Of a DNA stretch of 64,000 nucleotides, positions 5,200-54,835 are shown piece after piece. The DNA lies in the NCBI GenBank assembly GCA_002356455.1, contig AP017968.1:3348001-3412000 (forward strand). The letters run 5' to 3'. Position 1 is the stretch's first letter; each line of letters begins with the position of its first letter. The position numbers were made by a program, and so were the translations under genes. The notes under the pieces were generated by a model that was not told the origin of the DNA, searched no databases, and saw nothing but the letters and a program-made list of their open reading frames with translations. This DNA is from Fusobacterium varium (GTDB taxonomy: Bacteria; Fusobacteriota; Fusobacteriia; Fusobacteriales; Fusobacteriaceae).

Positions 5200-6204
5200 T
5201 TATTTGTTCATCATGCTGATATTTGCTGCTGATTTAACTCTCTTCTTAAAGAAATTAAATGATAGATTTCCTGAAAATGCATTAGCTAACAGAGAGCCTG
5301 AAACTTGATGTACTACAGTAGCTACTGCTGCTGGCAATGCACATAAAGGATTGGAAAACTGTGCTGCTAATCCTACTGCTAATCCTGAATTTTGCAATCC
5401 AACTTCAATAGAAAGTGCTTTTTTCTTAAAATCGTTCATTTTTGTAAATATTCCAATAATATATCCTAAAAGAAATCCAAACCAGTTATGAAGGCATACA
5501 GCCATAATAAGCACAGCTCCAGAATTAATAAGATTCATTTTATTAGGTGCAACACATAATCCCATAATCATTAAAATACATACAATTGGAATAATTACCA
5601 AGACTTTTGATACTTTATGTATTTTTTCTCCAAATGATTTATGTACTGCCATTCCTAGAAATATAGGAACAATGACAACTTTTACAATATCAAGAAGCAT
5701 TGCATACATATTAATCTCTACCCATTCTCCAGCTAACAAATATGTTAAAGCTGGTGTTAAAAGAGGAGCTACTAATGTAGATACAGTAGTCATTCCAATT
5801 GAAAGAGCTACATCTCCTTTTGCCAGATAAGTCATAACATTACTTGCAGTTCCTCCTGGACAAGTCCCTAAAAGAACTAATCCCACTGCTAATTCAGGAG
5901 GAAGCCTTAATGTTTTTGCTAGAAAATAGGCCATTAGAGGCATTACAGTGAACTGTGCAAGACATCCAATAAATACATCTTTAGGTCTTGTTACAATCAC
6001 TTTAAAATCTTTTTCATTAAGAGTAAGTCCCATAACAAACATAATAGAACCAAGCCCTAATGTTACCATAGATTGACCCAAAACTCTTGTTCTTCCCAAA
6101 GTGATAAATGCCTGTGGCAATACCATAGCTACTGCTACCATAAGTAAAACTAAAACAATAAAATATTTCCCTAAAAAGTCACTCAATTTATTTAATAATT
6201 TCAT
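5200..6204 (-). CDS. BASS-family (bile acid:sodium symporter) transporter
   Basis: A 334-residue integral membrane protein with about ten hydrophobic segments. Two family signatures are visible: GTCPGGTASNVMTYLAKGD near residue 112 and the EVGLQNSGLAVGLA crossover motif near residue 270. Both are typical of BASS proteins, which bind sodium and an organic anion; the bacterial subgroup includes ketopantoate and 2-keto-acid carriers. TAAGGAGAT is positioned well before the ATG. Transcribed with the downstream dehydrogenase. Upstream on the same strand are a 25-codon ORF, a terminator hairpin and a 43-codon ORF. The actual substrate is unknown. Confidence 0.9.
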   Translation of the reverse strand: MKLLNKLSDFLGKYFIVLVLLMVAVAMVLPQAFITLGRTRVLGQSMVTLGLGSIMFVMGLTLNEKDFKVIVTRPKDVFIGCLAQFTVMPLMAYFLAKTLRLPPELAVGLVLLGTCPGGTASNVMTYLAKGDVALSIGMTTVSTLVAPLLTPALTYLLAGEWVEINMYAMLLDIVKVVIVPIFLGMAVHKSFGEKIHKVSKVLVIIPIVCILMIMGLCVAPNKMNLINSGAVLIMAVCLHNWFGFLLGYIIGIFTKMNDFKKKALSIEVGLQNSGLAVGLAAQFSNPLCALPAAVATVVHQVSGSLLANAFSGNLSFNFFKKRVKSAANISMMNK

Positions 6205-6230
6205 TTTATATCTCCTTATTCATCTCTCTA

Positions 6231-6308
6231 TCAAAATTTACTTTCAAATGCCATTACCATCTTGCCAGTTTTTAATCTTCTTATCCGATCTGTTATGTAC
6301 TTTTTCAT
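6231..6308 (-). CDS. Small ORF (25 aa), possible leader peptide of the BASS transporter gene
   Basis: An ATG at 6308 preceded by GGAAGGGG (7-base spacer) opens a 25-codon frame ending in TGA at 6231, with 26 bases to the transporter start. The peptide begins MKKYITDRIRRLK and is strongly basic with no membrane segment. Position and ribosome site suggest either a translated leader coupled to the transporter or a small protein. Nothing in the sequence identifies a function. Confidence 0.4.
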   Translation of the reverse strand: MKKYITDRIRRLKTGKMVMAFESKF

Positions 6309-10742: not shown

Positions 10743-11792
10743 TTATTTTTCTAATTCTACTGTAAATTTAAGTCTTTTAAGCCCGTTTTTTATAGCTTTT
10801 ATCTTTAATTTACTCAATTTTGTATCTGATAATTCTTCAATAGGAGCTTCTTGAATAGAAGAAAGTTCTCCATAGTTTGATACAAGTTTTTCAATATCTT
10901 TCTTTGTAAGTTTACTTATTTTCCCAAGAATTCTATACCCTTTAGGACTTATTTTATTATCTAGGCTGCTGTAACTTTTCTTATATCCAAGTACACTTGC
11001 AAAATTTTCAATCTCAAGAAGTTCTGTATTATTAAATTCTCTAAGCTGTATAATAATGTTTTCGTATTCAACTTCTTCGCTTTTATAGTCACTTAAAAAT
11101 TCAAGCATCTCTTCATGTATATCCTGAGCCAAATCTTCCAATTGAAGCTCTATTAATCTTCCTTCTGCTCCCAGTTCCAGTACATATCCTTTTAGTTCTT
11201 CTTCTATTCTCATCATCATTTCAAATCTCTGTAAAACCAATGCAGCATCATAAATAGTCACTATATCATCAAGTTCTAATATAGTTAGATTTGCCAATGA
11301 TTTATCTAATACATATCTGTATCTTTCCATAGTTTTCAAAGCCTGTGATGCTTCATTCATTATTTCAGACATATCCTTAAGTTTATATCTCATTTCTCCC
11401 TTATATAAACTTATAGTTTTTCTTCTTTCAGATACAGCTATCACTAATTTATTAGTCTGCTTACCCGCTCTTTGTGCTGTCCTATGTCTAGTTCCACTTT
11501 CTTCAGATGAATATTTTCTGTCAACTTGAAGATGTACATTTGCATATATAATTGTTTTGCACTCTTCGTCAACTATTATAGCTCCATCCATTTTAGCCAA
11601 TTCAAATATTCTCTCTGGTGTATATTCACAGTTTATATAAAAACCACCATCAAGCATTTTTTCTACCGCTTCATCCATACCAACCACTATTAATGCTCCT
11701 ATTCCTGCATCAATGATATTGTACACTCCTTCTCTCAGAGGTGTTCCAGGAGTTATTTGCAAGAGCATTTCTTCAAGTTTTTTATTGACCAT
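10743..11792 (-). CDS. disA: DisA, DNA integrity scanning protein / diadenylate cyclase
   Basis: A 349-residue protein that makes c-di-AMP from two ATP and monitors DNA structure. The DAC domain has the hallmark DGA at residues 69-71 and GTRHRTA at 100-106. A central helical linker and a C-terminal RuvA-like helix-hairpin-helix DNA-binding region (LGKISKLTKKDIEKLVSNYG) complete the octamer-forming architecture. It overlaps the end of radA by 11 bases, the same pairing as in Firmicutes, linking c-di-AMP synthesis to recombination repair. In this window it is the probable source of ligand for the riboswitch at 47.1 kb. Confidence 0.97.
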   Translation of the reverse strand: MVNKKLEEMLLQITPGTPLREGVYNIIDAGIGALIVVGMDEAVEKMLDGGFYINCEYTPERIFELAKMDGAIIVDEECKTIIYANVHLQVDRKYSSEESGTRHRTAQRAGKQTNKLVIAVSERRKTISLYKGEMRYKLKDMSEIMNEASQALKTMERYRYVLDKSLANLTILELDDIVTIYDAALVLQRFEMMMRIEEELKGYVLELGAEGRLIELQLEDLAQDIHEEMLEFLSDYKSEEVEYENIIIQLREFNNTELLEIENFASVLGYKKSYSSLDNKISPKGYRILGKISKLTKKDIEKLVSNYGELSSIQEAPIEELSDTKLSKLKIKAIKNGLKRLKFTVELEK

Positions 11793-42030: not shown

Positions 42031-42864
42031 ATGAAAAAATTAATATTACTGATATTTTTTACTTTAACTATTTCAATTTTTGCATTAGAAGATATAAAAT
42101 TTTCAGGTAACGAAGTTAAACAAGGTGGATTTTTTTATGTTGAATATCCTATTAATAAAAACTATGAAATAATTTTTAAAAACTCTTTGACAAAAGTAAA
42201 AAGTTTTGAAGAAAATAATAAAAAAATTGCTCTTATCCCTGTACATTATTCAACTCCTGTAGGAGTATACACTGTAAAAATAATTGAAGAAAATAATGAG
42301 GTTTTTTCTAAAACTGTAAAAATTCTTGATGGGAATTTTAAAAAAAGTTATATAACAGTTTCAAAGACTATGTCAGAAAAGCGTTCTGATAAAAATATGA
42401 AAACAATGACTAATTTTGTAGCTGAAGCAAAAAAAAATCCTGTTAAAACAAAACTATGGAACAGTAATTTTATCCTTCCTGTAAAAAGCAAAATCAGCAG
42501 TCCTTTTGGAGCAATGCGATTTGTTAATGATAAGGTAGTTGGATATCATTCTGGTATTGATTTCCCAGTTCCTGTAGGAACTACTTTAAAAGCTGCCAAC
42601 TCTGGAAAAATAGTTCTTGCTAGAGAACTTACTACTACTGGAAATACTATTGTTATTGATCATGGAATGAATGTATTTTCAAGTTATGCTCATATGAGTG
42701 TTTTAAATGTAAAAGAAGGAGATACAATAAAAAAAGGTGATATTATTGGAAAAAGTGGAAATACAGGTTTTACTACTGGTCCTCATCTTCATTTTACAAT
42801 CAGTATTGGAACTACTTTTGTAAATCCACATATTTTCCTTGATTCTCCTATACTAGAAAACTAA
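42031..42864 (+). CDS. Secreted M23-family (LytM-type) peptidase
   Basis: 277 residues. A signal peptide (KKLILLIFFTLTISIFA) is followed by an N-terminal beta domain and the lysostaphin-like catalytic domain at residues ~165-275. Zinc ligands are His and Asp in YHSGIDFPV and the His in GPHLHFTISI. It probably cuts peptidoglycan crosslinks or activates other hydrolases in the periplasm. AAGGAG precedes the ATG. Confidence 0.92.
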   Translation: MKKLILLIFFTLTISIFALEDIKFSGNEVKQGGFFYVEYPINKNYEIIFKNSLTKVKSFEENNKKIALIPVHYSTPVGVYTVKIIEENNEVFSKTVKILDGNFKKSYITVSKTMSEKRSDKNMKTMTNFVAEAKKNPVKTKLWNSNFILPVKSKISSPFGAMRFVNDKVVGYHSGIDFPVPVGTTLKAANSGKIVLARELTTTGNTIVIDHGMNVFSSYAHMSVLNVKEGDTIKKGDIIGKSGNTGFTTGPHLHFTISIGTTFVNPHIFLDSPILEN

Positions 42865-42865
42865 T

Positions 42866-42911
42866 AAAAAACATCTTTCATATATTAATTAAATATAGAA
42901 AGATGTTTTTT
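42866..42911. terminator. Bidirectional terminator between the M23 gene and short kdpD
   Basis: AAAAAACATCTTTC and GAAAGATGTTTTTT are exact 14-bp complements. It serves both the rightward peptidase gene and the leftward sensor operon; its right end reaches the stop codon of kdpD. Confidence 0.85.
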
Positions 42912-44053
42912 TACATATTTTCCCAAGGAACTATTCTTATCTCTACTCCTTTAGAATTTTCTATTATTTTATTTATTACAGAGCCTTTAAAAAAAGTAGC
43001 TAATTTACTTCTTTTGCTGTGTCCTAAAACTATTTGTGTTATCCTTCTTTCAAAAGAAAATTTTAATATTTCTTTAACTATATCCTTTCCTTTCACTCTT
43101 ATAACTTCAGCTCCTAAAGTTTTAGCCAGTTCTTCATGCTGTTCTATTGCTTTCCATTCTTCAATTGTAAATCCTTTTTTTAAAATTCCATTGGTTTCTA
43201 TTGAAATAACATAGAATTCACATTTATATCTTTGAGCTATTCTTGCACCATATCTAATTATTCTTCCAGCTTTAGGGCTAGAGGATATTGAAACTAAAAC
43301 TCTTTCTGTCGTATGCCAATTAGTATTTATTTTTTTATTTTCCATATATTCAACAAGATTATTATCAACTTCCTGAGCTATTTGTCTTAAAGCTATTTCT
43401 CTTAATGCATTAAGATTTCCTTGCCTAAAAAAATTTTTAAGGGCATTTGGAACAGTCTGAAGATTATATATTTCTCCTCTTCTAAGTCTTTCCTCAAGTC
43501 CAGTAGCTGATATATCAATAACTTCCACTTCATCAGCTATATTTATTATTTTGTCAGGAATGGTTTCTCTCACTATTATTCCTGTTATTATACGAATTGT
43601 GTCATTTAAACTTTCAAGATGCTGAATATTCATAGTTGTATGAACATTTATCCCTGAATCTAATATTTCCAAGATATCTTCATATCTTTTTTTATTTTTA
43701 CTCCCTTTTATATTAGTATGAGCAAGTTCATCTATAAGAACTGTTTCTGGTTTTCTTCTTTTAATCCCTTCTACATCCACTTCTTTGTATTTTTTACTGC
43801 AATATTCTATCTCCAAAGGTAAAATTTCTTCTAATATACCTATTTGCTCTGTTGTAGCTTTTCTATCATGAGGTTCAATATATCCGATACATATATCTTC
43901 ACCTCTTTTTAGTCTTATGTTGGCTTCTCTCAACATTGTATAAGTTTTTCCTACTCCTGGTGAATAACCAAGGTATATTTTTAATTTTCCCTTTTTTTCT
44001 TTATTATATATTTTTAATGCCTCTTCTGGAGTTAATCTTTTTTCTTCTTCCAT
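42911..44053 (-). CDS. kdpD: Short KdpD: N-terminal KdpD domain plus universal-stress domain, no histidine kinase
   Basis: 380 residues, far shorter than the ~900 of full KdpD. The KdpD N-terminal domain has Walker A GYSPGVGKT (about 29) and VLIDELAHTN (about 110). A Usp domain follows from about residue 245 (VLVSISSSPKAGRIIRYGARIA) and the protein ends with it; the four-helix membrane and kinase parts are absent. In S. aureus the KdpD Usp domain binds c-di-AMP through an SxS-X20-FTAxY motif; here SxS and a Phe 20 residues later are present but TAxY is not. It probably acts on the separate kinase encoded at 45.1 kb. Last gene of the four-gene sensor operon. Confidence 0.92.
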   Translation of the reverse strand: MEEEKRLTPEEALKIYNKEKKGKLKIYLGYSPGVGKTYTMLREANIRLKRGEDICIGYIEPHDRKATTEQIGILEEILPLEIEYCSKKYKEVDVEGIKRRKPETVLIDELAHTNIKGSKNKKRYEDILEILDSGINVHTTMNIQHLESLNDTIRIITGIIVRETIPDKIINIADEVEVIDISATGLEERLRRGEIYNLQTVPNALKNFFRQGNLNALREIALRQIAQEVDNNLVEYMENKKINTNWHTTERVLVSISSSPKAGRIIRYGARIAQRYKCEFYVISIETNGILKKGFTIEEWKAIEQHEELAKTLGAEVIRVKGKDIVKEILKFSFERRITQIVLGHSKRSKLATFFKGSVINKIIENSKGVEIRIVPWENM

Positions 44054-44066
44054 ATTCTCTACATTC

Positions 44067-44738
44067 CTACCCTAACTTTATATCTTCATTAGAATAATCC
44101 ATTTCAGTTATTCTTTCCAAGTTACTTGCAGCAGGTTCATAAGAGGAATCTAAAGCTAAAGCGGCACGATATTGCTTTTGGGCTTCTCCTATTTTCCCTT
44201 TGCATTCAGCAATCACTCCTAATAAATTATGTGCTTCTGGAGAATTAATGCTTTTCCCAATTGCTATTTTTAAAAGATTTTCTCCTTTTTCAAAATTTCT
44301 TCCAATTATATTCAGTTTTGCATATTCTATATAATCTTCATAAGTTTCAAGTTTTTCTTCTATTAATTCTTCTCTTGAAAATACTTTTTTTACTATTACC
44401 CTTATTTGTTCTGGAGTAAATGGTTTGCTTATAAAATCAATAGCATTTAATTTCATTGCTTCTACAGCTTCTTTTATAGTCCCATATGCAGTCATCATAA
44501 TAATATTAGTTTTATTTTCTGATGATCTTAATTTTCTCAAAACTTCCATTCCATCCATATCTGGCATTTTAATATCTAATAAAATCAAATCATAATTTTT
44601 TTTCTGTTCCAAAGTCATTTTTAATGCTTCTTCTCCATTAGATGCTGTTTCTATTTCAAAACCTTCAGCTGCTAAACAACAGTTTAGAGTGGTTCTTATA
44701 TTTTTTTCATCATCTGTAATCAATATCTTTTTTTTCAT
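44067..44738 (-). CDS. Response regulator with TPR output domain
   Basis: 223 residues. The receiver domain occupies 1-120: acidic pair DDEKN, phosphorylated Asp in LILLDIKMPDMDGM (about 54), Thr in MMTAYG and Lys in ISKPFT. The rest is two or three tetratricopeptide-like repeats (NSPEAHNLLGVIAECKGKIG, EAQKQYRAALALDSSYEP). There is no winged helix or other DNA-binding domain, unlike KdpE. Output is therefore probably by protein-protein contact. It overlaps the upstream receiver gene by 4 bases (ATGA). Confidence 0.9.
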   Translation of the reverse strand: MKKKILITDDEKNIRTTLNCCLAAEGFEIETASNGEEALKMTLEQKKNYDLILLDIKMPDMDGMEVLRKLRSSENKTNIIMMTAYGTIKEAVEAMKLNAIDFISKPFTPEQIRVIVKKVFSREELIEEKLETYEDYIEYAKLNIIGRNFEKGENLLKIAIGKSINSPEAHNLLGVIAECKGKIGEAQKQYRAALALDSSYEPAASNLERITEMDYSNEDIKLG

Positions 44739-45112
44739 TTTTCCCCCTTGCTTATATTCTTTTCAATAACATCTAATATTTCTTTTTTGCTAAAAGGTTT
44801 TAATATATACCCATCTCCTCCTGAATCAAAAGCTTCTTCTATATCATTTTCACCATGTTTTGAACTCATAAATATTATTGGAATTTCTTTAAGATCAACA
44901 TCACATCTTAGAGATCTGCATACAGAATATCCATCTGCTTTTGGTAAACATATATCCAATAATATTAAATCTGGTCTCAATTCTCCTGCTTTTCTTACAC
45001 CTTCTAAACTGTCAAAAGCAACAAAAACGTCATATCCCTCATTTCTTAACATCAAATTTAAAGTTAGTAGAATATTTTTTTCATCATCTATAATAAGAAT
45101 TTTTTTTGACAT
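44735..45112 (-). CDS. Stand-alone receiver domain (CheY-like)
   Basis: 125 residues, a single receiver domain: DDEKN at 9-13, phosphoacceptor Asp in LILLDICLPKADGYS (about 53), Ser in FMSSKHGE and Lys in ILKPFSKKE. No output domain. It may pass phosphate between the kinase and the TPR regulator or act as an allosteric partner. It follows the kinase gene by 19 bases. Confidence 0.92.
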   Translation of the reverse strand: MSKKILIIDDEKNILLTLNLMLRNEGYDVFVAFDSLEGVRKAGELRPDLILLDICLPKADGYSVCRSLRCDVDLKEIPIIFMSSKHGENDIEEAFDSGGDGYILKPFSKKEILDVIEKNISKGEK

Positions 45113-45131
45113 TTTTCTCCTGTTCTCAATT

Positions 45132-46985
45132 TTAATCTATACTTTTTAATGAAAAATAAAAAGTACTTCCTTTTCCCAAAACACTATTAACCCATATTTC
45201 TCCACCATGAGCTTTTATAATTTCTTTACATATAGAAAGACCTAACCCAGTTCCTTCTATTTTCCCATCACTAGAAACTTTAACTTGTATAAATTTATTG
45301 AATATTTTTTCTAAATATTCTTCTGGTATTCCTTTCCCATTATCTTCTACAGAAACAATTATATTTTCTCCTCTTTTAAAAGCTTCTATTATTATATGCC
45401 CTTCTCTTTCTTCACTTCTATACTTTATTGCATTTGTTATGAGATTGGTCAATACTAATATAATTTTGTTTATATCAGCCAGAACAAAAAGTGAATTTCC
45501 TATATTTTTAATTTCAATTTTTACATTCCTATTTCCAGAAAAGTTTTTTAAAGAATTTACTGCTGTTTCTATAATTTCTTTAATATTATTTTTTTCAAAT
45601 TTCATATGAGTTTTTCCAGATTCTAATCTTGAAAGATCTAAAAGATCCTTAATAAGAAAATTTAATCTTTCACTATCTTCCTTTATTACTTTCAAAAGCT
45701 CTTTCTGCATTTCATTTATATCTCCCATAGAACCATCTGCTAAAAGCTCTACAGCCATCCCCATAGATGTGAGAGGAGTCCTAAATTCATGAGAAACTGT
45801 TGATACAAAATCTGATTTCATCTGATCTATTTCTTTCATCTTTGTTATATCCTGCAATAAAGTTACTATTCCTAAATTTTCTTTATTTTTTCCAATTATA
45901 GAATTTATAAAAATTCTGCAATAAATATTTTTTTCCAAATCAGAGTTTAAAGATAATTCCAATTGTTTAAAAGTAGATTTTATTTCCCTGTTAGTTAGAA
46001 CTTCATTAATACTTTCATATATTTTTTTATTTGGAATTGCTGTAAAAAATGGTTTATCTAATAATTCTGATTCTTTTACATTCAAAAGTTTTTCAGCAGC
46101 ATTATTAACAAGAAGTATCTTGTTTTCTCTATCAGTTACAATTATTCCATCACTTATACTTTCAACAATAGCTTCTGCCTTACTTTTTTCTGTCATTATT
46201 TTTTTTATATTTATGTTTTTATAATTATTCAATTTTTCTGCCATTTGATTAAATGCAATTCCTAATTCATTAAATTCCTTATCTAAATCTGCTGGTATTC
46301 TTTGTGAATAGTTTTCTTTAGATACTCCTTCAATTTTTTCAATAAAAATTTTAAATTGGCTTAAAATTTTTTTTATAAGATAACTAATTATCAACATTCC
46401 TAAAAATATTGTAACTGCTGCTACCATTATTGTAAAAAATGTAGCTTTCTCTGCTATTTTTCCAGCTTCATATCTTTTTGCCACCATAGAATCCTGATTG
46501 ATTTCTAATAATTTCTTGGAAATATTCTTTATCTTTTCAAATTTAGGAAAGACTTCTTTAAAATAAAAATTTCTTTGTTCTCCTATATCTTTAATTTTCA
46601 TAAAATCATAAAATAATTTTATATATTCTTTGTAGGAGTCACCAAGACTGGTTACTATTTCTTTTTCACCAATTTCTGTTATATTATCTTGAGCATTTTT
46701 TAAAAAATCATAAAATTGGGATTCATTTTTCATAAAATCCATTATATATTTTTCATCTCTTGTGAAAATATAAGATAATTGCAAACTATCTTGTCTTTCT
46801 ATTGCTGTTGTCATATTTTGGGCAGCAACTATACTCTTATAATTGGAATCCAGTATTCTTTCAATCGAATTATTTAAAATATTAAAATTAAAAACAGCCC
46901 ATAAACTATTTAAAGTTAAAATTACTAAGACTGTTACAAAAATTAAAAAAACTCTCATTTTAACACTTTTAATACTTACTTTCAT
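45132..46985 (-). CDS. Membrane sensor histidine kinase with HAMP and PAS domains
   Basis: 617 residues. TM1 at about 10-32, a helical extracytoplasmic domain of about 150 residues, TM2 at about 185-207, then HAMP, PAS (AIVESISDGIIVTDRENKIL), the phosphoacceptor His in STVSHEFRTPLTS (about 400) and the ATPase domain with NLITNAIKYRSEE, DNGKGIPEEYL and GTGLGLSICKEI. It is the only kinase in the operon, so it should supply the kinase function missing from the short KdpD. The ribosome site is weak (GGTG 7 bases before the ATG). A riboswitch and terminator precede it. Confidence 0.93.
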   Translation of the reverse strand: MKVSIKSVKMRVFLIFVTVLVILTLNSLWAVFNFNILNNSIERILDSNYKSIVAAQNMTTAIERQDSLQLSYIFTRDEKYIMDFMKNESQFYDFLKNAQDNITEIGEKEIVTSLGDSYKEYIKLFYDFMKIKDIGEQRNFYFKEVFPKFEKIKNISKKLLEINQDSMVAKRYEAGKIAEKATFFTIMVAAVTIFLGMLIISYLIKKILSQFKIFIEKIEGVSKENYSQRIPADLDKEFNELGIAFNQMAEKLNNYKNINIKKIMTEKSKAEAIVESISDGIIVTDRENKILLVNNAAEKLLNVKESELLDKPFFTAIPNKKIYESINEVLTNREIKSTFKQLELSLNSDLEKNIYCRIFINSIIGKNKENLGIVTLLQDITKMKEIDQMKSDFVSTVSHEFRTPLTSMGMAVELLADGSMGDINEMQKELLKVIKEDSERLNFLIKDLLDLSRLESGKTHMKFEKNNIKEIIETAVNSLKNFSGNRNVKIEIKNIGNSLFVLADINKIILVLTNLITNAIKYRSEEREGHIIIEAFKRGENIIVSVEDNGKGIPEEYLEKIFNKFIQVKVSSDGKIEGTGLGLSICKEIIKAHGGEIWVNSVLGKGSTFYFSLKSID

Positions 46986-47022
46986 TTTCTTTCACCATTT
47001 GCCTCTTTGTCGTTTAAAATTG

Positions 47023-47053
47023 AAAAACACCACAACAAAAAAGTCATGGTGTT
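47023..47053 (-). terminator. Expression-platform terminator between riboswitch and kinase gene
   Basis: On the minus strand AACACCA..TGGTGTT followed by TTTTTC, directly after the c-di-AMP aptamer and 38 bases before the kinase ATG. Confidence 0.75.
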
Positions 47054-47061
47054 ATGTTAAA

Positions 47062-47195
47062 CAAACCCAGGCTCTTTTCAACGCTGACGAGGTTAGCTGA
47101 CGGGCTCGGATTGAAAAGTATCCTATTCCTAATGGAAATACGCCCCAAAATAATGGTTCCCCCGCTTTATTTAAAAAATAAACTAAGCGATTTGG
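47062..47195 (-). ncRNA. c-di-AMP riboswitch (ydaO-yuaA type)
   Basis: The minus strand carries the aptamer blocks in order: AATCGCTTAG, AAAGCGGGGGAACC, TTTTGGGGCGTATT, TAGGAATAGGATA, and TCCGAGCCCGTCAGCTAACC followed by TCGTCAGCG. These match the B. subtilis ydaO arrangement as I recall it, including the CGCTTAG start. The element leads into the sensor kinase operon, not the kdpFABC operon. Known members of the class turn gene expression off when c-di-AMP binds. Confidence 0.93.
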
Positions 47196-47218
47196 TATTA
47201 TTCAATTTTCATTTTCAG

Positions 47219-47247
47219 ATATTACTCCTAAAATAAATAAAAGTCAA
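47219..47247 (-). promoter_or_regulatory. Promoter of the sensor operon (riboswitch transcript)
   Basis: On the minus strand TTGACT (47247-47242), 17 bases, TAATAT (47224-47219), about 25 bases before the aptamer. It carries the same TTGACTTTTAT block as the facing kdp promoter. Confidence 0.7.
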
Positions 47248-47325
47248 GTTTTTTTATATAAAATTTTTTTTCTGTTCTCTTTATAGTATAGCAAAAATTA
47301 TTAATTAAATTTTTAAAAAAAAGTA

Positions 47326-47353
47326 TTGACTTTTATGAGGAGTTAATGATAAT
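47326..47353 (+). promoter_or_regulatory. Promoter of the kdp operon
   Basis: TTGACT at 47326-47331, 16 bases, GATAAT at 47348-47353. It gives a leader of about 300 bases before kdpF containing a 26-codon ORF and three hairpins. TTGACTTTTAT here is the inverted copy of the block in the divergent promoter. Confidence 0.65.
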
Positions 47354-47379
47354 ATCCATAGCTATGAAACCTCTTTGTT

Positions 47380-47414
47380 AATAAAAATAATTTTTCACCA
47401 TTATTATTTTTATT
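47380..47414 (+). other. AT-only hairpin in the kdp leader
   Basis: AATAAAAATAAT and ATTATTTTTATT are exact 12-bp complements around an 11-base loop, just before the ribosome site of the 26-codon ORF. Low stability because all pairs are A-T. Confidence 0.45.
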
Positions 47415-47444
47415 TTAATTCTTTAATTGGAGGTGTTTAATAAC

Positions 47445-47525
47445 ATGATAAAATTATTTTCTTTACTATCAGCTGCTCTTTTTGTCTTAATATTTTTTTA
47501 TATTTTGAGATTTTTAGTTTTTTAA
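47445..47525 (+). CDS. 26-codon hydrophobic ORF in the kdp leader
   Basis: ATG at 47445 with GGAGGTG 9 bases upstream, TAA at 47523-47525. The peptide (MIKLFSLLSAALFVL...) is one membrane-spanning helix rich in Leu and Phe. A perfect 10-bp hairpin (47504-47533) overlaps its last codons and stop. It may be a second small Kdp-type membrane peptide or a leader peptide coupling translation to read-through into kdpFABC. Not a recognised family. Confidence 0.55.
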   Translation: MIKLFSLLSAALFVLIFFYILRFLVF

Positions 47526-47533
47526 ATCTCAAA
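47504..47533 (+). terminator. Hairpin across the end of the leader ORF
   Basis: TTTGAGATTT and AAATCTCAAA are exact complements with a 10-base loop, followed by TATTTTT. The arm starts within the last codons of the 26-codon ORF, so a translating ribosome would prevent pairing. Confidence 0.6.
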
Positions 47534-47580
47534 TATTTTTAAGCATTAACAGCAGTTTTTGTTTTGTCTATTTTTGTCAA

Positions 47581-47616
47581 AAAAATAGTATTTTCATATA
47601 TAAAAATACTATTTTT
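47581..47616 (+). terminator. Second hairpin before kdpF
   Basis: AAAAATAGTATTTT and AAAATACTATTTTT are exact 14-bp complements with an 8-base loop, followed by AAAATATTTTTATATTTTT. It lies 43 bases before the kdpF start and looks like a terminator or attenuator. Confidence 0.6.
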
Positions 47617-47659
47617 AAAATATTTTTATATTTTTATAAATATTAAGGAGGAAGGGAAA

Positions 47660-47737
47660 ATGATAATTTTAGGTGTCATTATATTTTTTTTGTTTTGTTA
47701 TTTATTTTATGCTTTATTTAAACCAGAAAAATTTTAG
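47660..47737 (+). CDS. kdpF: KdpF, small subunit of the K+-transporting ATPase
   Basis: 25 codons, ATG at 47660 with AAGGAGGAAGGG upstream. One membrane helix ending YLFYALFKPEKF, which matches the (Y)ALxxPExF tail of KdpF. It stabilises the KdpABC complex. It ends 13 bases before kdpA. Confidence 0.9.
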   Translation: MIILGVIIFFLFCYLFYALFKPEKF

Positions 47738-47750
47738 GGAGGGATTTTAG

Positions 47751-49376
47751 ATGTCTTTATTAAATGTATTTATTTTTCTTATTGTTTTTATTTTATTGAT
47801 AATTCCTGTTGGAAAACATATATCAAAATTGATTTTACATGAAAAAACAATTTTTGATTCTTTATTTTCTAAAATGGAAAAAATTATATTTAAAGTTACA
47901 GGAAATGAAAATATGAGTCTTAAAACTTATATTACAGCCTTTTTAGGAACTAACTTAATTATGCTTATTTTAACATATATTATTCTAGGTTTAGATGGTT
48001 CTTCTCCTTCTCTGGCTTTTAATACAGCAGTAAGTTTTGTTACTAATACAAATTTACAGCATTATTCTGGTGAATGGTTAAATGGAATAATATCTAGGTT
48101 AGCTTTAATAAATCTGATGTTTACATCTGCAGCAAGCGGTCTTGCTATATCTATGGCGATTATTAGAGGAATATTAAAAATCAGATTAGGGAATTTCTTT
48201 GAAGATTTAACAAAGTCTATGACAAGACTATTACTTCCTTTATCAATAATTGTTGCAGTTTCTTTGGTTATTTTAGGTACTCCCCAAACTTTTGATACTC
48301 AGATAATAGTAAAAACAATAGAAGGTCAATATCAAGTAATTACTTTAGGACCTTCAGCTGCCTGGGAAGCTATAAAACATTTAGGTACAAATGGTGGTGG
48401 AATTTTTTCAGCTAATTCGTCACATCCTTTTGAAAATATTTCATTATATACAAATTATATTGAAATGATGTGCATGATGATTATTCCAGGGTCTACTATT
48501 ATAGGATTTGGAATGGCTGCTAAAAATAAAAAACAAGGTTGGTTCATATTTTTACCAATATTTGCTTTATTTCTTTTCTCTTTTTTCATGTTATATCACT
48601 TTGAAAAACAAGGAGTTCCATTGTTTTCACAATATGGAATAAATGGTATTAATATGGAAGGTAAAGAAATGAGATTCGGCCTCATCGCTTCGATTTTATT
48701 TACAGATATAACAACATCCTTTACAACAGGAAGTGTTAATAACATGCATGACTCTTTAACTCCAATAGCTGGAATGATGCCTTTATGGAATATGATGCTG
48801 AATTGCATATTTGGAGGAAAAGGTGTTGGATTTATGAATATCATTATGTATATGATGTTTGGAGTATTCTTATGTGGACTTATGGTTGGAAGAACTCCTG
48901 AATTCTTTGGAAAAAAACTTGAAGCTAAAGAAATGCAGATAATAACATTTTTAATATTAATTCACCCAATTATAATATTAGTTCCCAGTGCTGTATCTCT
49001 TATCAGTGATTTAGGTGTTTCTGGAATTACAAATTCTGGATTCCATGGAATATCTCAAGTGCTGTATGAGTACACTTCAAGTGCTGCTAATAATGGTTCT
49101 GGATTTGAAGGTCTTGGAGATGGAACTACATTTTGGAATATAATGACAGGAATAGTAATGCTTTTAGGAAGATATATAAGTATGATATTAATGACAGTAG
49201 TTGGATATTCACTTTATAAAAAACAACCTGTTCCTGTTAATGCATCAACATTTAAAACAGATAATCTGACTTTTTCTTTTATTTTATTTTTTATAATTTT
49301 GATAATTGGTGCTCTTACATTTTTACCTGCTTTGGCTTTGGGACCTATTGCTGAGCATTTGAGTATCTGGGGGTAA
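47751..49376 (+). CDS. kdpA: KdpA, potassium-binding and translocating subunit
   Basis: 541 residues with about ten membrane helices. The selectivity-filter-like loops are visible: NTAVSFVTNTNLQHYSGE, GPSAAWEAIKHLGTNGGG and the later NNGSGFEGLGDGT stretch. GGGAGGG precedes the ATG. First large gene of kdpFABC, and 6 bases from kdpB. Confidence 0.97.
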   Translation: MSLLNVFIFLIVFILLIIPVGKHISKLILHEKTIFDSLFSKMEKIIFKVTGNENMSLKTYITAFLGTNLIMLILTYIILGLDGSSPSLAFNTAVSFVTNTNLQHYSGEWLNGIISRLALINLMFTSAASGLAISMAIIRGILKIRLGNFFEDLTKSMTRLLLPLSIIVAVSLVILGTPQTFDTQIIVKTIEGQYQVITLGPSAAWEAIKHLGTNGGGIFSANSSHPFENISLYTNYIEMMCMMIIPGSTIIGFGMAAKNKKQGWFIFLPIFALFLFSFFMLYHFEKQGVPLFSQYGINGINMEGKEMRFGLIASILFTDITTSFTTGSVNNMHDSLTPIAGMMPLWNMMLNCIFGGKGVGFMNIIMYMMFGVFLCGLMVGRTPEFFGKKLEAKEMQIITFLILIHPIIILVPSAVSLISDLGVSGITNSGFHGISQVLYEYTSSAANNGSGFEGLGDGTTFWNIMTGIVMLLGRYISMILMTVVGYSLYKKQPVPVNASTFKTDNLTFSFILFFIILIIGALTFLPALALGPIAEHLSIWG

Positions 49377-49382
49377 TTAACT

Positions 49383-51437
49383 ATGAGTAAAAAACAAATT
49401 AAATCTTTTTCTAAAGATATAATAAATAAAGCTTTAATTGATTCTTTTAAAAAATTTAATCCTAGAATTTTGATTAAAAATCCTGTTATATTTGTTGTTG
49501 AAATAGGTTTTTTTCTAACATTAATTTTAACTGTCAATCCTACATTATTTACAGAAAATGAAGCTGATTTGAGAATGTTCAATGGAATTATTTCGTTTAT
49601 TCTTTTTATCACTGTAATATTTGCAAACTTTGCTGAATCAATTGCTGAAGGGAGAGGAAAAGCACAAGCTGACAGTTTGAAAAAAACCAGAAAAGAAACT
49701 TCTGCTAATCTTTTAAAAGAAGATAACAGTATAGAAAAGGTTGATGCTGGTTCCCTGAAAAAAGGAGATATTGTTATCGTAAATACTGGAGAACTTATTC
49801 CAAATGATGGAGTTGTTATTGAAGGGATAGCATCTGTAGATGAATCAGCTATTACAGGAGAGTCTGCCCCTGTTATCAAAGAAGCTGGTGGAGATTTTTC
49901 ATCAGTTACTGGAGGAACTCGTGTTGTTAGTGATAAAATTAAGGTTCAAATATCTGTTTCTAGCGGAGAATCTTTCCTTGATAAAATGATTAGTCTTGTT
50001 GAAGGAGCTGAGAGAAAGAAAACTCCTAATGAAATTGCTCTGAATACTGTATTGGTTGGTTTGACTCTTATATTTTTAGTGGTTATTGTAACTTTATTTC
50101 CAATGGGATTATATGCTGGAGTTCATCTTCCTTTATCTACACTTATTGCTCTGCTTGTCTGTTTAATTCCAACTACTATTGGAGGGCTGCTTTCAGCCAT
50201 AGGTATAGCTGGTATGGATAGAGTAAATAAATTTAATGTCATTGCTATGTCTGGTAAAGCTGTTGAAACTTGTGGTGATATTAATACAATTATTTTAGAT
50301 AAAACAGGAACTATTACATTTGGTAATAGACTTGCTGATGAATTTTTCCCTGTAAAAGGAATTCCTAAAGATGAAATGATAGAATATTCTGCTATTTCTT
50401 CATTAAAAGACTTAACTCCAGAAGGAAGGTCTATTGTAGAATTAAGTAAAAAATTTGGTGTCATTTTAACTGAAAAAGATTTTGATAAAGCTGAATTTAT
50501 TGATTTTAGTGCTCAAACAAAAACCAGTGGAATTAATCTAGAAAATGGTCAAAAAATTAGAAAAGGTTCAGGTTCTTCAATTAAAAAATTTGTTCAGGAA
50601 CAAAATGGACCCATTCCTAAAGATCTTGATAGTATAATTGATAAAATTTCAAGACTTGGTGGAACTCCTTTGGTGCTTGCTGTTGACAGTAAAATTTATG
50701 GTGTTATTTATTTAAAGGACACAGTTAAACCAGGATTAAAGGAAAGGTTTAATAATATAAGGAAAATGGGAATCAAAACTATTATGTGTACTGGAGATAA
50801 TCCTCTAACTGCTGAAACAATAGCTAAAGAAGCTGGAATAGATGAATTTGTAGCTGAATGTACACCAGAAGAAAAAATTGAAGTTATAAAAAGAGAACAA
50901 TCTCAAGGTAAATTAGTAGCTATGACAGGAGATGGAACTAATGATGCTCCTGCACTTGCACAAGCTGATGTAGGTATTGCAATGAACAGTGGTACTATTG
51001 CTGCTAAAGAAGCTGCTAATATGGTAGATTTAGATTCTAATCCTACAAAAATTCTTGAAGTTGTAGAAATAGGTAAGCAATTGCTAATAACTCGTGGGGC
51101 TCTTACTACATTCAGTATAGCCAATGATGTTGCGAAATACTTTGCTATTATCCCTGCTATGTTTATAACTGCTATTCCACAGATGGAGAAACTTAATATT
51201 ATGCATCTTTCTTCACCTATAAGTGCAATAATTTCAGCATTAATATTTAATGCAATCATTATTCCGCTCCTAGTTCCAATTGCACTAAAAGGAGTTAAAT
51301 ATAAACCTATGAATGTACAAATAATGCTGCTTAAAAATTTAGGTATATATGGACTTGGTGGAATTATAGTTCCATTTATTGGAATAAAATTAATTGATTT
51401 AATCGTTACTCCATTCCTTTCAATTTTAGGAATGTAA
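49383..51437 (+). CDS. kdpB: KdpB, P-type ATPase subunit
   Basis: 684 residues. TGES-type actuator motif [15 protein letters not shown] (about 157-171), phosphorylated Asp in [12 protein letters not shown] (about 303), the nucleotide-binding [10 protein letters not shown] and the hinge [18 protein letters not shown]. Seven membrane segments in the usual order. It couples ATP hydrolysis to potassium uptake through KdpA. Confidence 0.98.
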
Positions 51438-51454
51438 TTATAGGAGGAAATAAA

Positions 51455-52024
51455 ATGAACTTAATAAAAAAGGGTATTCATATTACTATCGTTCTATTTA
51501 TAATTGCTGCTGTTTATACAGTTATAATAAATATCTTTGCTCAGACATTCTTTAAAGATAGTGCAAATGGAAGCATTATTTATAAAAATGGACAAGCCAT
51601 AGGAAGTAAATATATAGGCCAGCTTTTTACAAGTGAAAAATATTTTCACGGAAGACCATCAGCTTATAATTATAATACATATAACTCTAATGGAGAAGCT
51701 GAAACACTTCCCGCTTCTGGAGGTTCAAACTTAGCAATAAGTAATCCCACATATTCTGAAAATTTAAAAAATAGAATTGAAAAACTTTTAAATGACAATC
51801 CAGAATTAAAAACTAAAGAAATTCCTGTTGATATGGTAACGACTTCTGGTTCAGGAGTTGATCCTAATATATCAATTCAAGGTGCAATGATACAAACTAA
51901 AAGAATTGCTAAAGCTAATAATATTCCTGAAGAAAAAATCATAGAATTAATAAAAAATAATATAAATAATAATATGATTAATGTTTTAGAATTAAACTTA
52001 GCTTTAAATGAATTAGTAAAATAG
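51455..52024 (+). CDS. kdpC: KdpC, accessory subunit of the K+-transporting ATPase
   Basis: 189 residues with one N-terminal membrane helix and a periplasmic domain including GSKYIGQLFTSEKYFHGRPSAYNY and the VTTSGSGVDPNISIQGAMIQ motif typical of the family. AGGAGG precedes the ATG. Last gene of kdpFABC, followed by a strong terminator. Confidence 0.96.
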   Translation: MNLIKKGIHITIVLFIIAAVYTVIINIFAQTFFKDSANGSIIYKNGQAIGSKYIGQLFTSEKYFHGRPSAYNYNTYNSNGEAETLPASGGSNLAISNPTYSENLKNRIEKLLNDNPELKTKEIPVDMVTTSGSGVDPNISIQGAMIQTKRIAKANNIPEEKIIELIKNNINNNMINVLELNLALNELVK

Positions 52025-52109: not shown

Positions 52110-53261
52110 ATGATAGAATTTAAAAATGTATATAAATCTTATAAAAATAAACCTGTTCTTATGGATATAAATTTAAAAATTAAATCTGGTGAGTTTTTCA
52201 TATTAATTGGATCAAGTGGTTGCGGAAAAACAACTCTTCTAAAAACCATCAACAAATTGCAAACTATAAATGATGGTTTTATTTTAATGGATAATGTTCC
52301 TATATCTAATATAAAAAATACTGCTCTAAGAAAAAAAATAGGATATGTTGTCCAAGAAGGAGGTCTCTTTCCTCATTTAACTGTTGCAGAAAATATTTCA
52401 ATTATATTGGATAATAAAAACTTGGAAAAAGAAAAATTAAATAGGCATATTGATAACTTATTAAGAATGGTCAATCTTGATCCTATTACTTTTAGAGATT
52501 CCTATCCTATTCAACTCAGTGGTGGACAAAAACAAAGGGTCGGAGTTGCAAGAGCTTTTGCCAATGATCCTGATATTATTCTTATGGATGAACCTTTTTC
52601 AGCTCTTGACCCAGTTACCAGAGCTGAACTTCAGGATGAAATATATAAATTACAAAAAAACGAAAAAAAGACAATAATTTTTGTAACCCATGATATGGAT
52701 GAAGCCATAAAACTAGCTGACAGAATCTGTATAATTCAAAATGGAAAAATAGTACAATGTGATACTCCTGAATATATTTTAAAAAATCCAGTCAATTCCT
52801 ATGTAGAAGATTTTATTGGAAAAAATAAACTATGGAGTAATCCAGAATTTATTAAAGCGATAGATATTATGAAAAAAAATCCATTTAAAATTTCTAAAGA
52901 ACGAACTACTTTCCAGGCTGTACAAATAATGAAACATAATACTGTTGACAGCATTTTAGTTACAGATGAAAATAAACTTATAGGAATAATCTATCTTAAA
53001 GATATTTTAAATTTCAATGACTACAGTATTCCATTAGAACAGTATATTTCTCAAGATTATGTATCTGTTTATGAGAATACAAGCCTTCATAAAATATTGA
53101 ATACTATTGACTATGATATCTCTGGAGTTATTCCTGTTATTAATCATGAGAATGTTCTAACTGGTTTTCTTACTAAAAGTATTCTTTTAGCCACTTTAAG
53201 TAAACAATATACAAAGATTAATGAAAAAAATGATATAGTAGAGAGGGGCGAAACAATATGA
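52110..53261 (+). CDS. Osmoprotectant ABC transporter ATPase with CBS domains (OpuCA-like)
   Basis: 383 residues. Walker A GSSGCGKTTLL (about 36), signature LSGGQKQRVGVARA (about 137), Walker B IILMDEPFSALD. The C-terminal ~120 residues form a CBS pair (TTFQAVQIMKHNTVDSILVT and DYVSVYENTSLHKILN). In Listeria the CBS pair of OpuCA binds c-di-AMP and inhibits uptake, so this is a plausible second target of that nucleotide. AAGGAAGG precedes the ATG. It overlaps the next gene by 4 bases. Confidence 0.93.
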   Translation: MIEFKNVYKSYKNKPVLMDINLKIKSGEFFILIGSSGCGKTTLLKTINKLQTINDGFILMDNVPISNIKNTALRKKIGYVVQEGGLFPHLTVAENISIILDNKNLEKEKLNRHIDNLLRMVNLDPITFRDSYPIQLSGGQKQRVGVARAFANDPDIILMDEPFSALDPVTRAELQDEIYKLQKNEKKTIIFVTHDMDEAIKLADRICIIQNGKIVQCDTPEYILKNPVNSYVEDFIGKNKLWSNPEFIKAIDIMKKNPFKISKERTTFQAVQIMKHNTVDSILVTDENKLIGIIYLKDILNFNDYSIPLEQYISQDYVSVYENTSLHKILNTIDYDISGVIPVINHENVLTGFLTKSILLATLSKQYTKINEKNDIVERGETI

Positions 53262-54835
53262 CTGATTTTTTTAACTTGCTCATAACTAGAAGAGCAGATG
53301 TTGTTGAAAGGCTTTTAGAACATATATCTATGACAACAATGTCAGTTTTAATTTCTTTATTCATAGGTATACCACTTGGTATAATTATAACTAAAAATAA
53401 ATTTTTAGCTAATATAATTATTGGAATAGCCAATTTATTGCAATCTATTCCCTGTATTGCTCTCTTAGCCTTTTCAGTTCCATTTGTTGGCATTGGAGAA
53501 AAACCAGCTATTTTAATGGTTATCATTTATGCTTTGCTTCCAATCATAAAAAATACTTATACAGGTTTAAAAAGTATTGATTCAAAAACATTAGAATCTG
53601 CTTATGGAATTGGTCTATCTTCATTAGAGATATTATTTAAGATAGAACTTCCAATAGCAGCTTCATTTATTATGGCTGGAATAAGAATATCTGCTGTTGC
53701 AGCTGTTGGAACCATGACCATAGCAGCATTTGCTGGAGCTGGTGGTCTTGGATGGTTTATCAATATGGGGCTGATAGGTTTAAATATAAACATGGTTCTT
53801 TTGGGCGCTATTCCAGCTTCTATTTTAGCTCTTTTAATAGATTATATATTAGCTAATCTCGAAACAATAATAACTCCTGAAGGTTTAAAACCAGTTGAAG
53901 AAATAAATAGGCTTACTAAACATCAATTATTCATAAAAAAAATTATTATCTGTTCTATATCTTTTATGGTATTTTTTATTCCTTTAGGTATAAATTTAAA
54001 TAAATATTTTGAAAAAGATGAAAAAACAATAGTAGTAGGAACTACTAATTTTACAGAAGCATTTACTTTAGGATATATTTATAGTGAATTAATAGAAAAA
54101 AACACTGATATAAAAGTCATTAAAAGATTCAATCTCAATGGAGCCGATTTTGCTTTTAATGCACTCAACAGTGGAAAAATTGATATTTTTGTGGAATATA
54201 CAGGAACTATTTTAGCTAACTTTCTCAAAAAACCTATTGTTTCTGATCCAGACATAGTATATCAAACAGCATATGATGGTCTTTTGAAAAACTTTGATGT
54301 CTTTCTTTCAAAACCTATTGGATTTAACAATACTTATGTGATGAGCACTACTGAAAACACTGCTAAAAAATATGGCCTAAAAAATCTTTCTGATCTTGTA
54401 AATATTTCAAATGTATTAACTTTAGGTTGTACTTCTGAATTTATTCAAAGAGAAGATGGATTATTAGGAATGGAGAAAAAATTAGGAATAAATTTTAAAA
54501 CAGTAAAAACTCTTGATGCAACTGTTAGATATCAAGCAGTTGCTAATGATGAAGTAGATGTTATTGATGCTTTTTCTACAGATGCTCTTTTAAAAAAACT
54601 ATCATTGGTTCCTTTAAAAGATGATATAGGATTTTTTCCTCCTTTCTATGCTGTAAATTTAATGAAAATTGATCTTTTTAAAAAATACCCTGAATTAAAA
54701 CCTTTGTTTTCAAAATTAGATGGTTTAATTAATGATGAAGAAATGCGAACCATGAATTATATGGTAGATGTTGAAGGAAAGGATTCTAAAGATGTAGCTC
54801 ATGAATTTTTATTAAAAAATAATCTTATTCCTTAA
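53258..54835 (+). CDS. Osmoprotectant ABC permease fused to substrate-binding domain
   Basis: 525 residues. An N-terminal permease of about 225 residues with six hydrophobic segments and the EAA-like loop ESAYGIGLSSLEILFKIELP is joined through a further membrane segment (IICSISFMVFFIPLGINL) to a periplasmic OpuAC-type binding domain from about residue 260 (TIVVGTTNFTEAFTLGYIYS). Fused permease-binding proteins of this kind transport glycine betaine, choline or carnitine. The ligand cannot be fixed from the sequence. With the preceding ATPase it forms a complete two-gene uptake system next to kdpFABC. Confidence 0.92.
   Translation: MTDFFNLLITRRADVVERLLEHISMTTMSVLISLFIGIPLGIIITKNKFLANIIIGIANLLQSIPCIALLAFSVPFVGIGEKPAILMVIIYALLPIIKNTYTGLKSIDSKTLESAYGIGLSSLEILFKIELPIAASFIMAGIRISAVAAVGTMTIAAFAGAGGLGWFINMGLIGLNINMVLLGAIPASILALLIDYILANLETIITPEGLKPVEEINRLTKHQLFIKKIIICSISFMVFFIPLGINLNKYFEKDEKTIVVGTTNFTEAFTLGYIYSELIEKNTDIKVIKRFNLNGADFAFNALNSGKIDIFVEYTGTILANFLKKPIVSDPDIVYQTAYDGLLKNFDVFLSKPIGFNNTYVMSTTENTAKKYGLKNLSDLVNISNVLTLGCTSEFIQREDGLLGMEKKLGINFKTVKTLDATVRYQAVANDEVDVIDAFSTDALLKKLSLVPLKDDIGFFPPFYAVNLMKIDLFKKYPELKPLFSKLDGLINDEEMRTMNYMVDVEGKDSKDVAHEFLLKNNLIP

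What the first reader, a model, noticed from the sequence alone, without database searches (positions are those of the whole stretch)
42911..47195. c-di-AMP riboswitch in front of a K+ sensor operon rather than the K+ pump
The minus strand from 47195 reads a ydaO-type c-di-AMP aptamer with a terminator (47023-47053) directly before a histidine kinase, two receiver proteins and a short KdpD. Known riboswitches of this class usually sit before transporter or cell-wall genes. Here the nucleotide would set the amount of the sensing machinery, not directly of kdpFABC, which is on the other strand. The disA synthase gene is in the same window.
Basis: partly seen in the sequence, partly recalled or inferred. 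Interest (0 to 1): 0.8.

Follow-up and report, generated by a model that had tools for sequence, protein, structure and literature searches.

The report
c-di-AMP off-switch on Kdp regulator operon
A genuine riboswitch for the signal molecule c-di-AMP sits in front of the genes that control a bacterial potassium pump rather than the pump itself, and probably shuts those genes off when potassium is plentiful; the parts are known but the placement is not described in the papers I could search.

Summary
A full-length c-di-AMP (ydaO) aptamer (98.3 bits, cut-off 38) lies at 47199-47067 on the minus strand. One intrinsic terminator (47053-47026) follows, then an uninterrupted operon: histidine kinase, receiver-only protein, receiver-TPR protein, and short KdpD (KdpD+Usp, no kinase core). 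It is the only such aptamer in the genome. kdpFABC is divergent and has no aptamer. DisA is the only diadenylate cyclase.

All 8 kdpD-bearing genomes of the genus have an aptamer in front of their KdpD-containing operon. In two relatives the operon also carries TrkA-TrkA-TrkH, a K+ transporter; in two others it holds KdpD alone. So "sensor rather than transporter" describes this genome, and KdpD is the constant passenger. Neither receiver has a DNA-binding domain.

The expression platform predicts an OFF switch: the aptamer's pseudoknot strand doubles as anti-terminator, as reported for a Dehalobacter c-di-AMP riboswitch. c-di-AMP should therefore stop synthesis of a KdpD that, in Deinococcus, c-di-AMP activates as a brake on the pump. 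I read this as a brake stocked while K+ is scarce and fired when K+ returns. New variant of a known kind; no experiment.

The parts
47219..47247 (-). sigma-70-like promoter of the riboswitch operon (TTGACT, 17, TAATAT)
   Evidence: consensus scan, 9 of 12; a TTGAC/-10 block is also seen in the other seven kdp loci
47067..47199 (-). c-di-AMP (ydaO/yuaA) aptamer RF00379, full length, with the pseudoknot between the P6 loop (CUUUUCA) and the 3' tail (UGAAAAG)
   Evidence: 98.3 bits, cut-off 38, model 1-134; 14 copies in the 12 genomes of the genus
47026..47081 (-). predicted expression platform: anti-terminator strand (AAAAGAGCC-UGG, shared with the aptamer pseudoknot) that can pair with the terminator 5' arm and loop (CCAUGACUUUUUU)
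   Evidence: alternative helix found in 14 of 14 platforms, individually weak; matched strands pair better than permuted ones, 491 of 20000
47022..47053 (-). intrinsic terminator, 11-pair stem and T-run
   Evidence: conserved in position in all 14 loci
45132..46985 (-). membrane histidine kinase (HAMP-PAS-HisKA-HATPase)
   Evidence: Pfam; full-length homologue (33%) divergent from kdpABC in Clostridium sp. L074 and (32%) beside kdpC in L082
44735..45112 (-). receiver-only response regulator
   Evidence: Pfam PF00072 only
44067..44738 (-). receiver plus TPR-like C-terminus, no DNA-binding domain
   Evidence: Pfam PF00072 plus sub-threshold TPR_2; similar layout in kdp-linked clostridial RRs
42911..44053 (-). 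short KdpD: KdpD ATP-binding domain + Usp, no histidine kinase
   Evidence: PF02702 281.8 bits, PF00582 42.3 bits; Walker A G-X5-GKT and Walker B DE invariant in alignment A1
47326..47355 (+). sigma-70-like promoter of kdpFABC, divergent
   Evidence: block conserved in the 8 kdp loci
47660..52024 (+). kdpF (47660-47737), kdpA, kdpB, kdpC

Best explanation
The element is a transcription-terminating c-di-AMP OFF riboswitch that sets how much of the Kdp regulatory operon is made. When K+ is scarce and c-di-AMP (from DisA) is low, the 3' tail of the aptamer (AAAAGAGCC) pairs with the terminator's left arm and loop, the terminator does not form, and the kinase, the two receivers and short KdpD are made. 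When K+ is plentiful and c-di-AMP is high, the same tail is held in the aptamer pseudoknot, the terminator forms and the operon is shut. Short KdpD already made is then itself c-di-AMP-activated and phosphorylates KdpB, stopping pumps already in the membrane. The riboswitch thus ensures that the brake is stocked only while the pump is likely to be in use. Shown here: aptamer, terminator, operon, conservation, and the strand geometry as a prediction. Inferred: ligand binding, OFF direction in vivo, serine-kinase activity of this KdpD, and that the kinase/receivers act on kdpFABC at all.
For: Aptamer far above threshold. The only terminator lies between aptamer and first gene, with none inside the operon. 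The alternative helix between the pseudoknot tail and the terminator left arm/loop is found in all 14 platforms of the genus, both the kdp ones and those in front of osmolyte-transporter genes. It shows some covariation across loci: matched strands average -8.0 kcal/mol, mismatched -7.1, 491 of 20000 permutations as good. The same logic (aptamer P1/pseudoknot nucleotides pairing with the left terminator shoulder, OFF) was proposed for, and fits in vitro transcription of, the Dehalobacter c-di-AMP riboswitch (PMC9337991), and c-di-AMP promotes termination at the B. thuringiensis kdp riboswitch (PMC6488665). Aptamer in front of a KdpD-containing operon in 8 of 8 kdpD-bearing genomes of the genus, including two where KdpD is the only gene left. 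Walker A/B residues of the serine-kinase domain invariant. Sole cyclase DisA. Short KdpD of D. geothermalis is a c-di-AMP-stimulated KdpB kinase (PMC11018627); truncated KdpD of B. anthracis binds c-di-AMP (PMC11302148).
Against: The riboswitch would turn off the very protein that c-di-AMP switches on, which looks self-defeating unless timing (stocked brake) matters. The Usp domain keeps only part of the S. aureus c-di-AMP motif: SxS, a 20-residue gap and F are kept, but not TAxY (alignment to 7ji4; motif from PMC4686210). No DNA-binding output domain in either receiver, so a path to the kdpFABC promoter is missing. Duplex z-scores per sequence are weak (mostly -1 to -2, one at 0.1) and the permutation signal comes from the osmolyte-transporter platforms; the kdp ones are too alike to inform (24 of 24 permutations).
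Confidence: 0.7

Rival explanations
1. The riboswitch is there for the K+ transporter Trk, as usual for this class; HK, receivers and KdpD are passengers in an ancestral K+ uptake operon, and the window genome simply lost the trk genes, leaving a relic control.
For: TrkA-TrkA-TrkH lie in the same slot, between the receiver-TPR gene and kdpD, in G027 and G019; G025 has the same TrkH type on another contig. The genome nearest to the window among those compared (G027, 95% KdpD identity) still has them.
Against: In at least five of the eight loci trk is absent next to the riboswitch, yet aptamer, pseudoknot and terminator are intact. In G021/G022 only KdpD remains and the switch is kept, so KdpD, not Trk, is the constant passenger.
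Confidence: 0.2
2. It is an ON switch here: c-di-AMP promotes read-through so that the c-di-AMP-dependent brake KdpD is made when K+ is high.
For: It would make biological sense with a c-di-AMP-activated inhibitor of the pump (PMC11018627).
Against: The platform has the same strand order and the same tail/terminator complementarity as the osmolyte-transporter copies in the same genus and as the published OFF switch; no anti-anti-terminator strand was seen.
Confidence: 0.08
3. The kinase and receivers are the real target: c-di-AMP limits a kdpFABC-activating two-component system, an indirect copy of the Bacillales logic in which the riboswitch stops kdpFABC directly. (Not exclusive of the best explanation.)
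For: HK and receiver-TPR are kdp-linked also in Clostridium (HK 33% over full length); low c-di-AMP would raise activator and pump together.
Against: No DNA-binding domain in either receiver; HK and receivers are missing beside the riboswitch in G021/G022, which keep kdpFABC and the riboswitch.
Confidence: 0.3

Closest known systems
c-di-AMP riboswitch of kdpFABC in Bacillus thuringiensis / B. anthracis (PMC6488665; PMC11302148)
   Same: Same aptamer family, transcription-termination OFF logic, a Kdp locus, and a truncated KdpD.
   Different: There the riboswitch precedes kdpFABC, with kdpD downstream. Here it precedes HK-RR-RR-KdpD and kdpFABC is divergent without an aptamer. The 2019 survey found riboswitch-kdp only in Bacillales; these loci are outside that order.
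Short KdpD (KdpD/Usp) serine kinase of Deinococcus geothermalis (PMC11018627)
   Same: Domain layout KdpD+Usp, Walker A G-X5-GKT and Walker B DE.
   Different: No riboswitch is described for the Deinococcus gene; activity and ligand binding of the present protein are untested.
Dehalobacter Na+/c-di-AMP tandem riboswitch (PMC9337991)
   Same: c-di-AMP aptamer tail/pseudoknot strand acts as anti-terminator; terminator lies apart from the aptamer; OFF.
   Different: No Na+ aptamer here; the target is regulator genes, not lysine-2,3-aminomutase.
c-di-AMP riboswitches before OpuC-type osmolyte ABC transporter genes in the same genus (L020, L023-L026, L031)
   Same: Nearly identical aptamer and platform.
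   Different: Downstream genes are transporters; the terminator loop reads CUCU rather than CUUUUU in four of the six.

Membership tests
c-di-AMP riboswitch (RF00379) | covariance-model score above the gathering cut-off, full-length | tested here: met
   98.3 bits vs 38, model 1-134
c-di-AMP riboswitch (RF00379) | pseudoknot between P6 loop and 3' tail | tested here: met
   CUUUUCA/UGAAAAG complementary in 12 of 14; in L020/L024 both strands change and remain pairable with one bulge (alignment A2, read by eye)
c-di-AMP riboswitch (RF00379) | binds c-di-AMP and changes expression | not testable with these tools
   needs in-line probing and transcription assay
OFF-type terminating riboswitch | terminator downstream of the aptamer and an anti-terminator using aptamer nucleotides | tested here: met
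   structural prediction only
Short KdpD serine kinase | KdpD domain + Usp, no DHp/CA; Walker A G-X5-GKT and Walker B DE | tested here: met
NCBIfam NF038185 KdpD_non_kinase | score above the curated cut-off | tested here: not met
   best model for the protein, but 393 bits against a cut-off of 550
Short KdpD serine kinase | c-di-AMP binding by Usp (SxS-X20-FTAxY in S. aureus) | tested here: inconclusive
   SxS, 20-residue spacing and F kept; T, A, Y not
KdpDE two-component system | KdpE-type regulator with a DNA-binding domain | tested here: not met
   both receivers lack an output DNA-binding domain

The most novel reading that the evidence does not exclude
c-di-AMP controls the brake on the Kdp pump twice with opposite signs: it stops transcription of short KdpD through the riboswitch and activates the KdpD already made. 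The brake is loaded during K+ starvation and fired on K+ return. In two species the riboswitch serves KdpD alone, so this would be a dedicated, incoherent c-di-AMP circuit on a single inhibitor.
Probability: 0.45. Interest if true: 0.65.

Novelty: new variant of a known kind. Interest (0 to 1): 0.5.

Why it matters
It extends c-di-AMP riboswitch control of Kdp outside Bacillales and moves it from the pump to the pump's regulator. It also places the riboswitch and a protein of the c-di-AMP-activated KdpD type in one circuit, where the order of events (brake made, then fired) can be tested directly. The genomes with riboswitch-KdpD alone (G021, G022) are the minimal system for that test.

Tried and rejected
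ON-switch reading: sought in the predicted folds, no supporting strand geometry. A second aptamer or known RNA on the kdpFABC leader: no credible Rfam match even at E up to 5. The same arrangement outside the genus: none among 86 loci of other KdpD relatives; aptamers there are upstream of kdpFABC, or beside a decayed second kdp copy in B. methanolicus. Relocated HK in G021/G022: no match at E 1e-60. A kdp-type TrkH elsewhere in the window genome: only 31-32% paralogues. The genome-contig scan returned no member of the genus itself. The 2013 c-di-AMP riboswitch paper (PMC3830699) is not held, so its gene-association tables were not checked.

Full report
WHAT IS THERE. On the minus strand, 47199-47067 is a full-length c-di-AMP (ydaO/yuaA) aptamer, 98.3 bits against a gathering score of 38. 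It is the only RF00379 match in the 4.12 Mb genome. A promoter-like TTGACT-17-TAATAT lies at 47247-47219 and the terminator stem at 47053-47026 with its T-run to about 47022; that is the only terminator-like site in 42800-47800 (one such site is also the chance expectation, so its support is its place and its conservation). Four genes follow without a break: a HAMP-PAS-HisKA-HATPase kinase (46985-45132), a receiver-only protein (45112-44735), a receiver with a TPR-like tail (44738-44067) and a short KdpD of the KdpD-domain + Usp type without kinase core (44053-42911). kdpF, A, B, C run divergently from 47660 with their own promoter-like site at 47326-47355 and no aptamer. DisA at 10743-11792 is the only diadenylate cyclase in the genome; it is 35 kb away.

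CONSERVATION. In 98 genomes of the phylum, RF00379 matches above cut-off occur in all 12 genomes of the genus and nowhere else (large sets are scored with stricter filters, which can lose weak matches). They fall into two kinds: before OpuC-type osmolyte ABC transporter genes (G020, G023, G024, G029, and second copies in G019, G025), and before a KdpD-containing operon divergent from kdpA (G000, G019, G021, G022, G025, G026, G027, G028). Those eight are exactly the genomes of the genus with a KdpD above the curated cut-off. Six genomes of other genera of the phylum with a KdpD above cut-off have no aptamer.

OPERON CONTENT VARIES. G026 and G028 match the window, although the kinase reading frame of G028 is broken in this assembly. 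G027 and G019 have two TrkA-type proteins and a TrkH between the receiver-TPR gene and KdpD. The window genome has no TrkH of that type, only 31-32% paralogues elsewhere. G021 and G022 have riboswitch then KdpD only, and no such HK in the genome. In G025 KdpD comes first and an HK fragment follows at a contig end.

DIRECTION OF THE SWITCH. Folding without the terminator's right arm suggests, and pairwise duplex prediction finds in all 14 platforms, an alternative helix: the pseudoknot tail (AAAAGAGCC in kdp copies, AGAGUU in most osmolyte copies) pairs with the terminator left arm and loop (GACUUUUU or GACUCU). Individual z-scores are modest (0.1 to -4.2). A permutation of strands between ten representatives gives matched -8.0 against mismatched -7.1 kcal/mol, 491 of 20000 permutations as good. 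The four kdp representatives alone carry no signal because they are nearly identical; the six osmolyte-transporter ones give 17 of 720. White et al. describe the same geometry for a Dehalobacter c-di-AMP riboswitch, and their in vitro transcription data fit OFF (PMC9337991). OFF is therefore the prediction; it is not measured here.

OUTSIDE THE GENUS. Among 80 other KdpD loci plus six from the phylum, aptamers occur only in Bacillota. They lie upstream of kdpFABC with short KdpD as a later gene, except B. methanolicus, where the aptamer is beside a decayed second kdp copy; one aptamer, in Paenibacillus sedimenti, looks damaged. Clostridial relatives carry the same kind of HK (33% over full length) and receiver-TPR protein beside kdp, without aptamer. 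A regulator without DNA-binding domain is thus a recurring feature of kdp loci and not damage in this genome.

MECHANISM. Short KdpD of D. geothermalis is a c-di-AMP-stimulated serine kinase that inactivates KdpB (PMC11018627); the truncated KdpD of B. anthracis binds c-di-AMP and its transcript rises about threefold when the riboswitch region is deleted (PMC11302148). The present protein keeps the Walker A and B residues but only part of the S. aureus Usp motif. Putting these together, I propose a stocked brake: low c-di-AMP permits synthesis of KdpD (and HK/receivers); rising c-di-AMP stops synthesis and fires the KdpD present. How, and whether, the HK and receivers reach the kdpFABC promoter is unknown.

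NOVELTY. The 2019 survey stated that riboswitch-controlled kdp operons seemed restricted to Bacillales (PMC6488665). Text searches found no paper joining c-di-AMP, Fusobacterium, potassium and KdpD. The 2013 class paper could not be read, and automatic genome annotation may already mark these aptamers. I rate this a new variant of a known kind.

Noticed in passing
L154, L155, L156, L157, L158, L159, L160, L161, L171, L172 (matches near base 1500 of each locus); also L033:6590-6692, L034:6782-6875, L035:7474-7564, L036:8066-8158 and 6185-6282: A short ydaO-like RNA directly before an NhaC-type antiporter gene: 10 copies in 8 genomes of two genera. Core GCGGGGGACCCA - small variable hairpin - GCUAACCUCGUC, with an upstream CGCUU...AAGCG helix and a terminator-like hairpin after it in most. 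It lacks the middle of the c-di-AMP aptamer; the five copies that RF00379 picks up score only 25-30 bits, below the gathering score, and no other Rfam family fits. Candidate variant riboswitch, possibly with changed ligand or stoichiometry.
   Followed up: partly
window 47445-47525 (+); similar sORFs in L021, L022, L028, L030, L032: A 21-26 aa hydrophobic reading frame with a good ribosome-binding site upstream of kdpF (MIKLFSLLSAALFVLIFFYILRFLVF), present in 6 of 8 kdp loci, two in L030, not seen in L027/L029. Possible leader peptide or second KdpF-like small protein.
   Followed up: partly
window 47360-47660 (+): Long kdpF leader (about 300 nt) with A/T-rich inverted repeats; in L027/L029/L030 a conserved GTTTATT...AATAAAC stretch and short hairpins that resemble a structured RNA; no credible Rfam hit for the window.
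   Followed up: partly
window 52110-54835 (+): An OpuC-type osmolyte ABC transporter (ATPase with CBS domains; permease fused to binding protein) starts 85 bases after kdpC and may be co-transcribed with the pump; other members of the genus keep an OpuC-type operon under its own c-di-AMP riboswitch.
   Followed up: no
L084:11869-13049: Bacillus methanolicus: a c-di-AMP aptamer is followed by fragments of kdpB and kdpC, apparently a decayed second kdp operon.
   Followed up: no
window 40505-40379 (-): FMN riboswitch, 108.1 bits, in front of riboflavin synthesis genes; ordinary.
   Followed up: no
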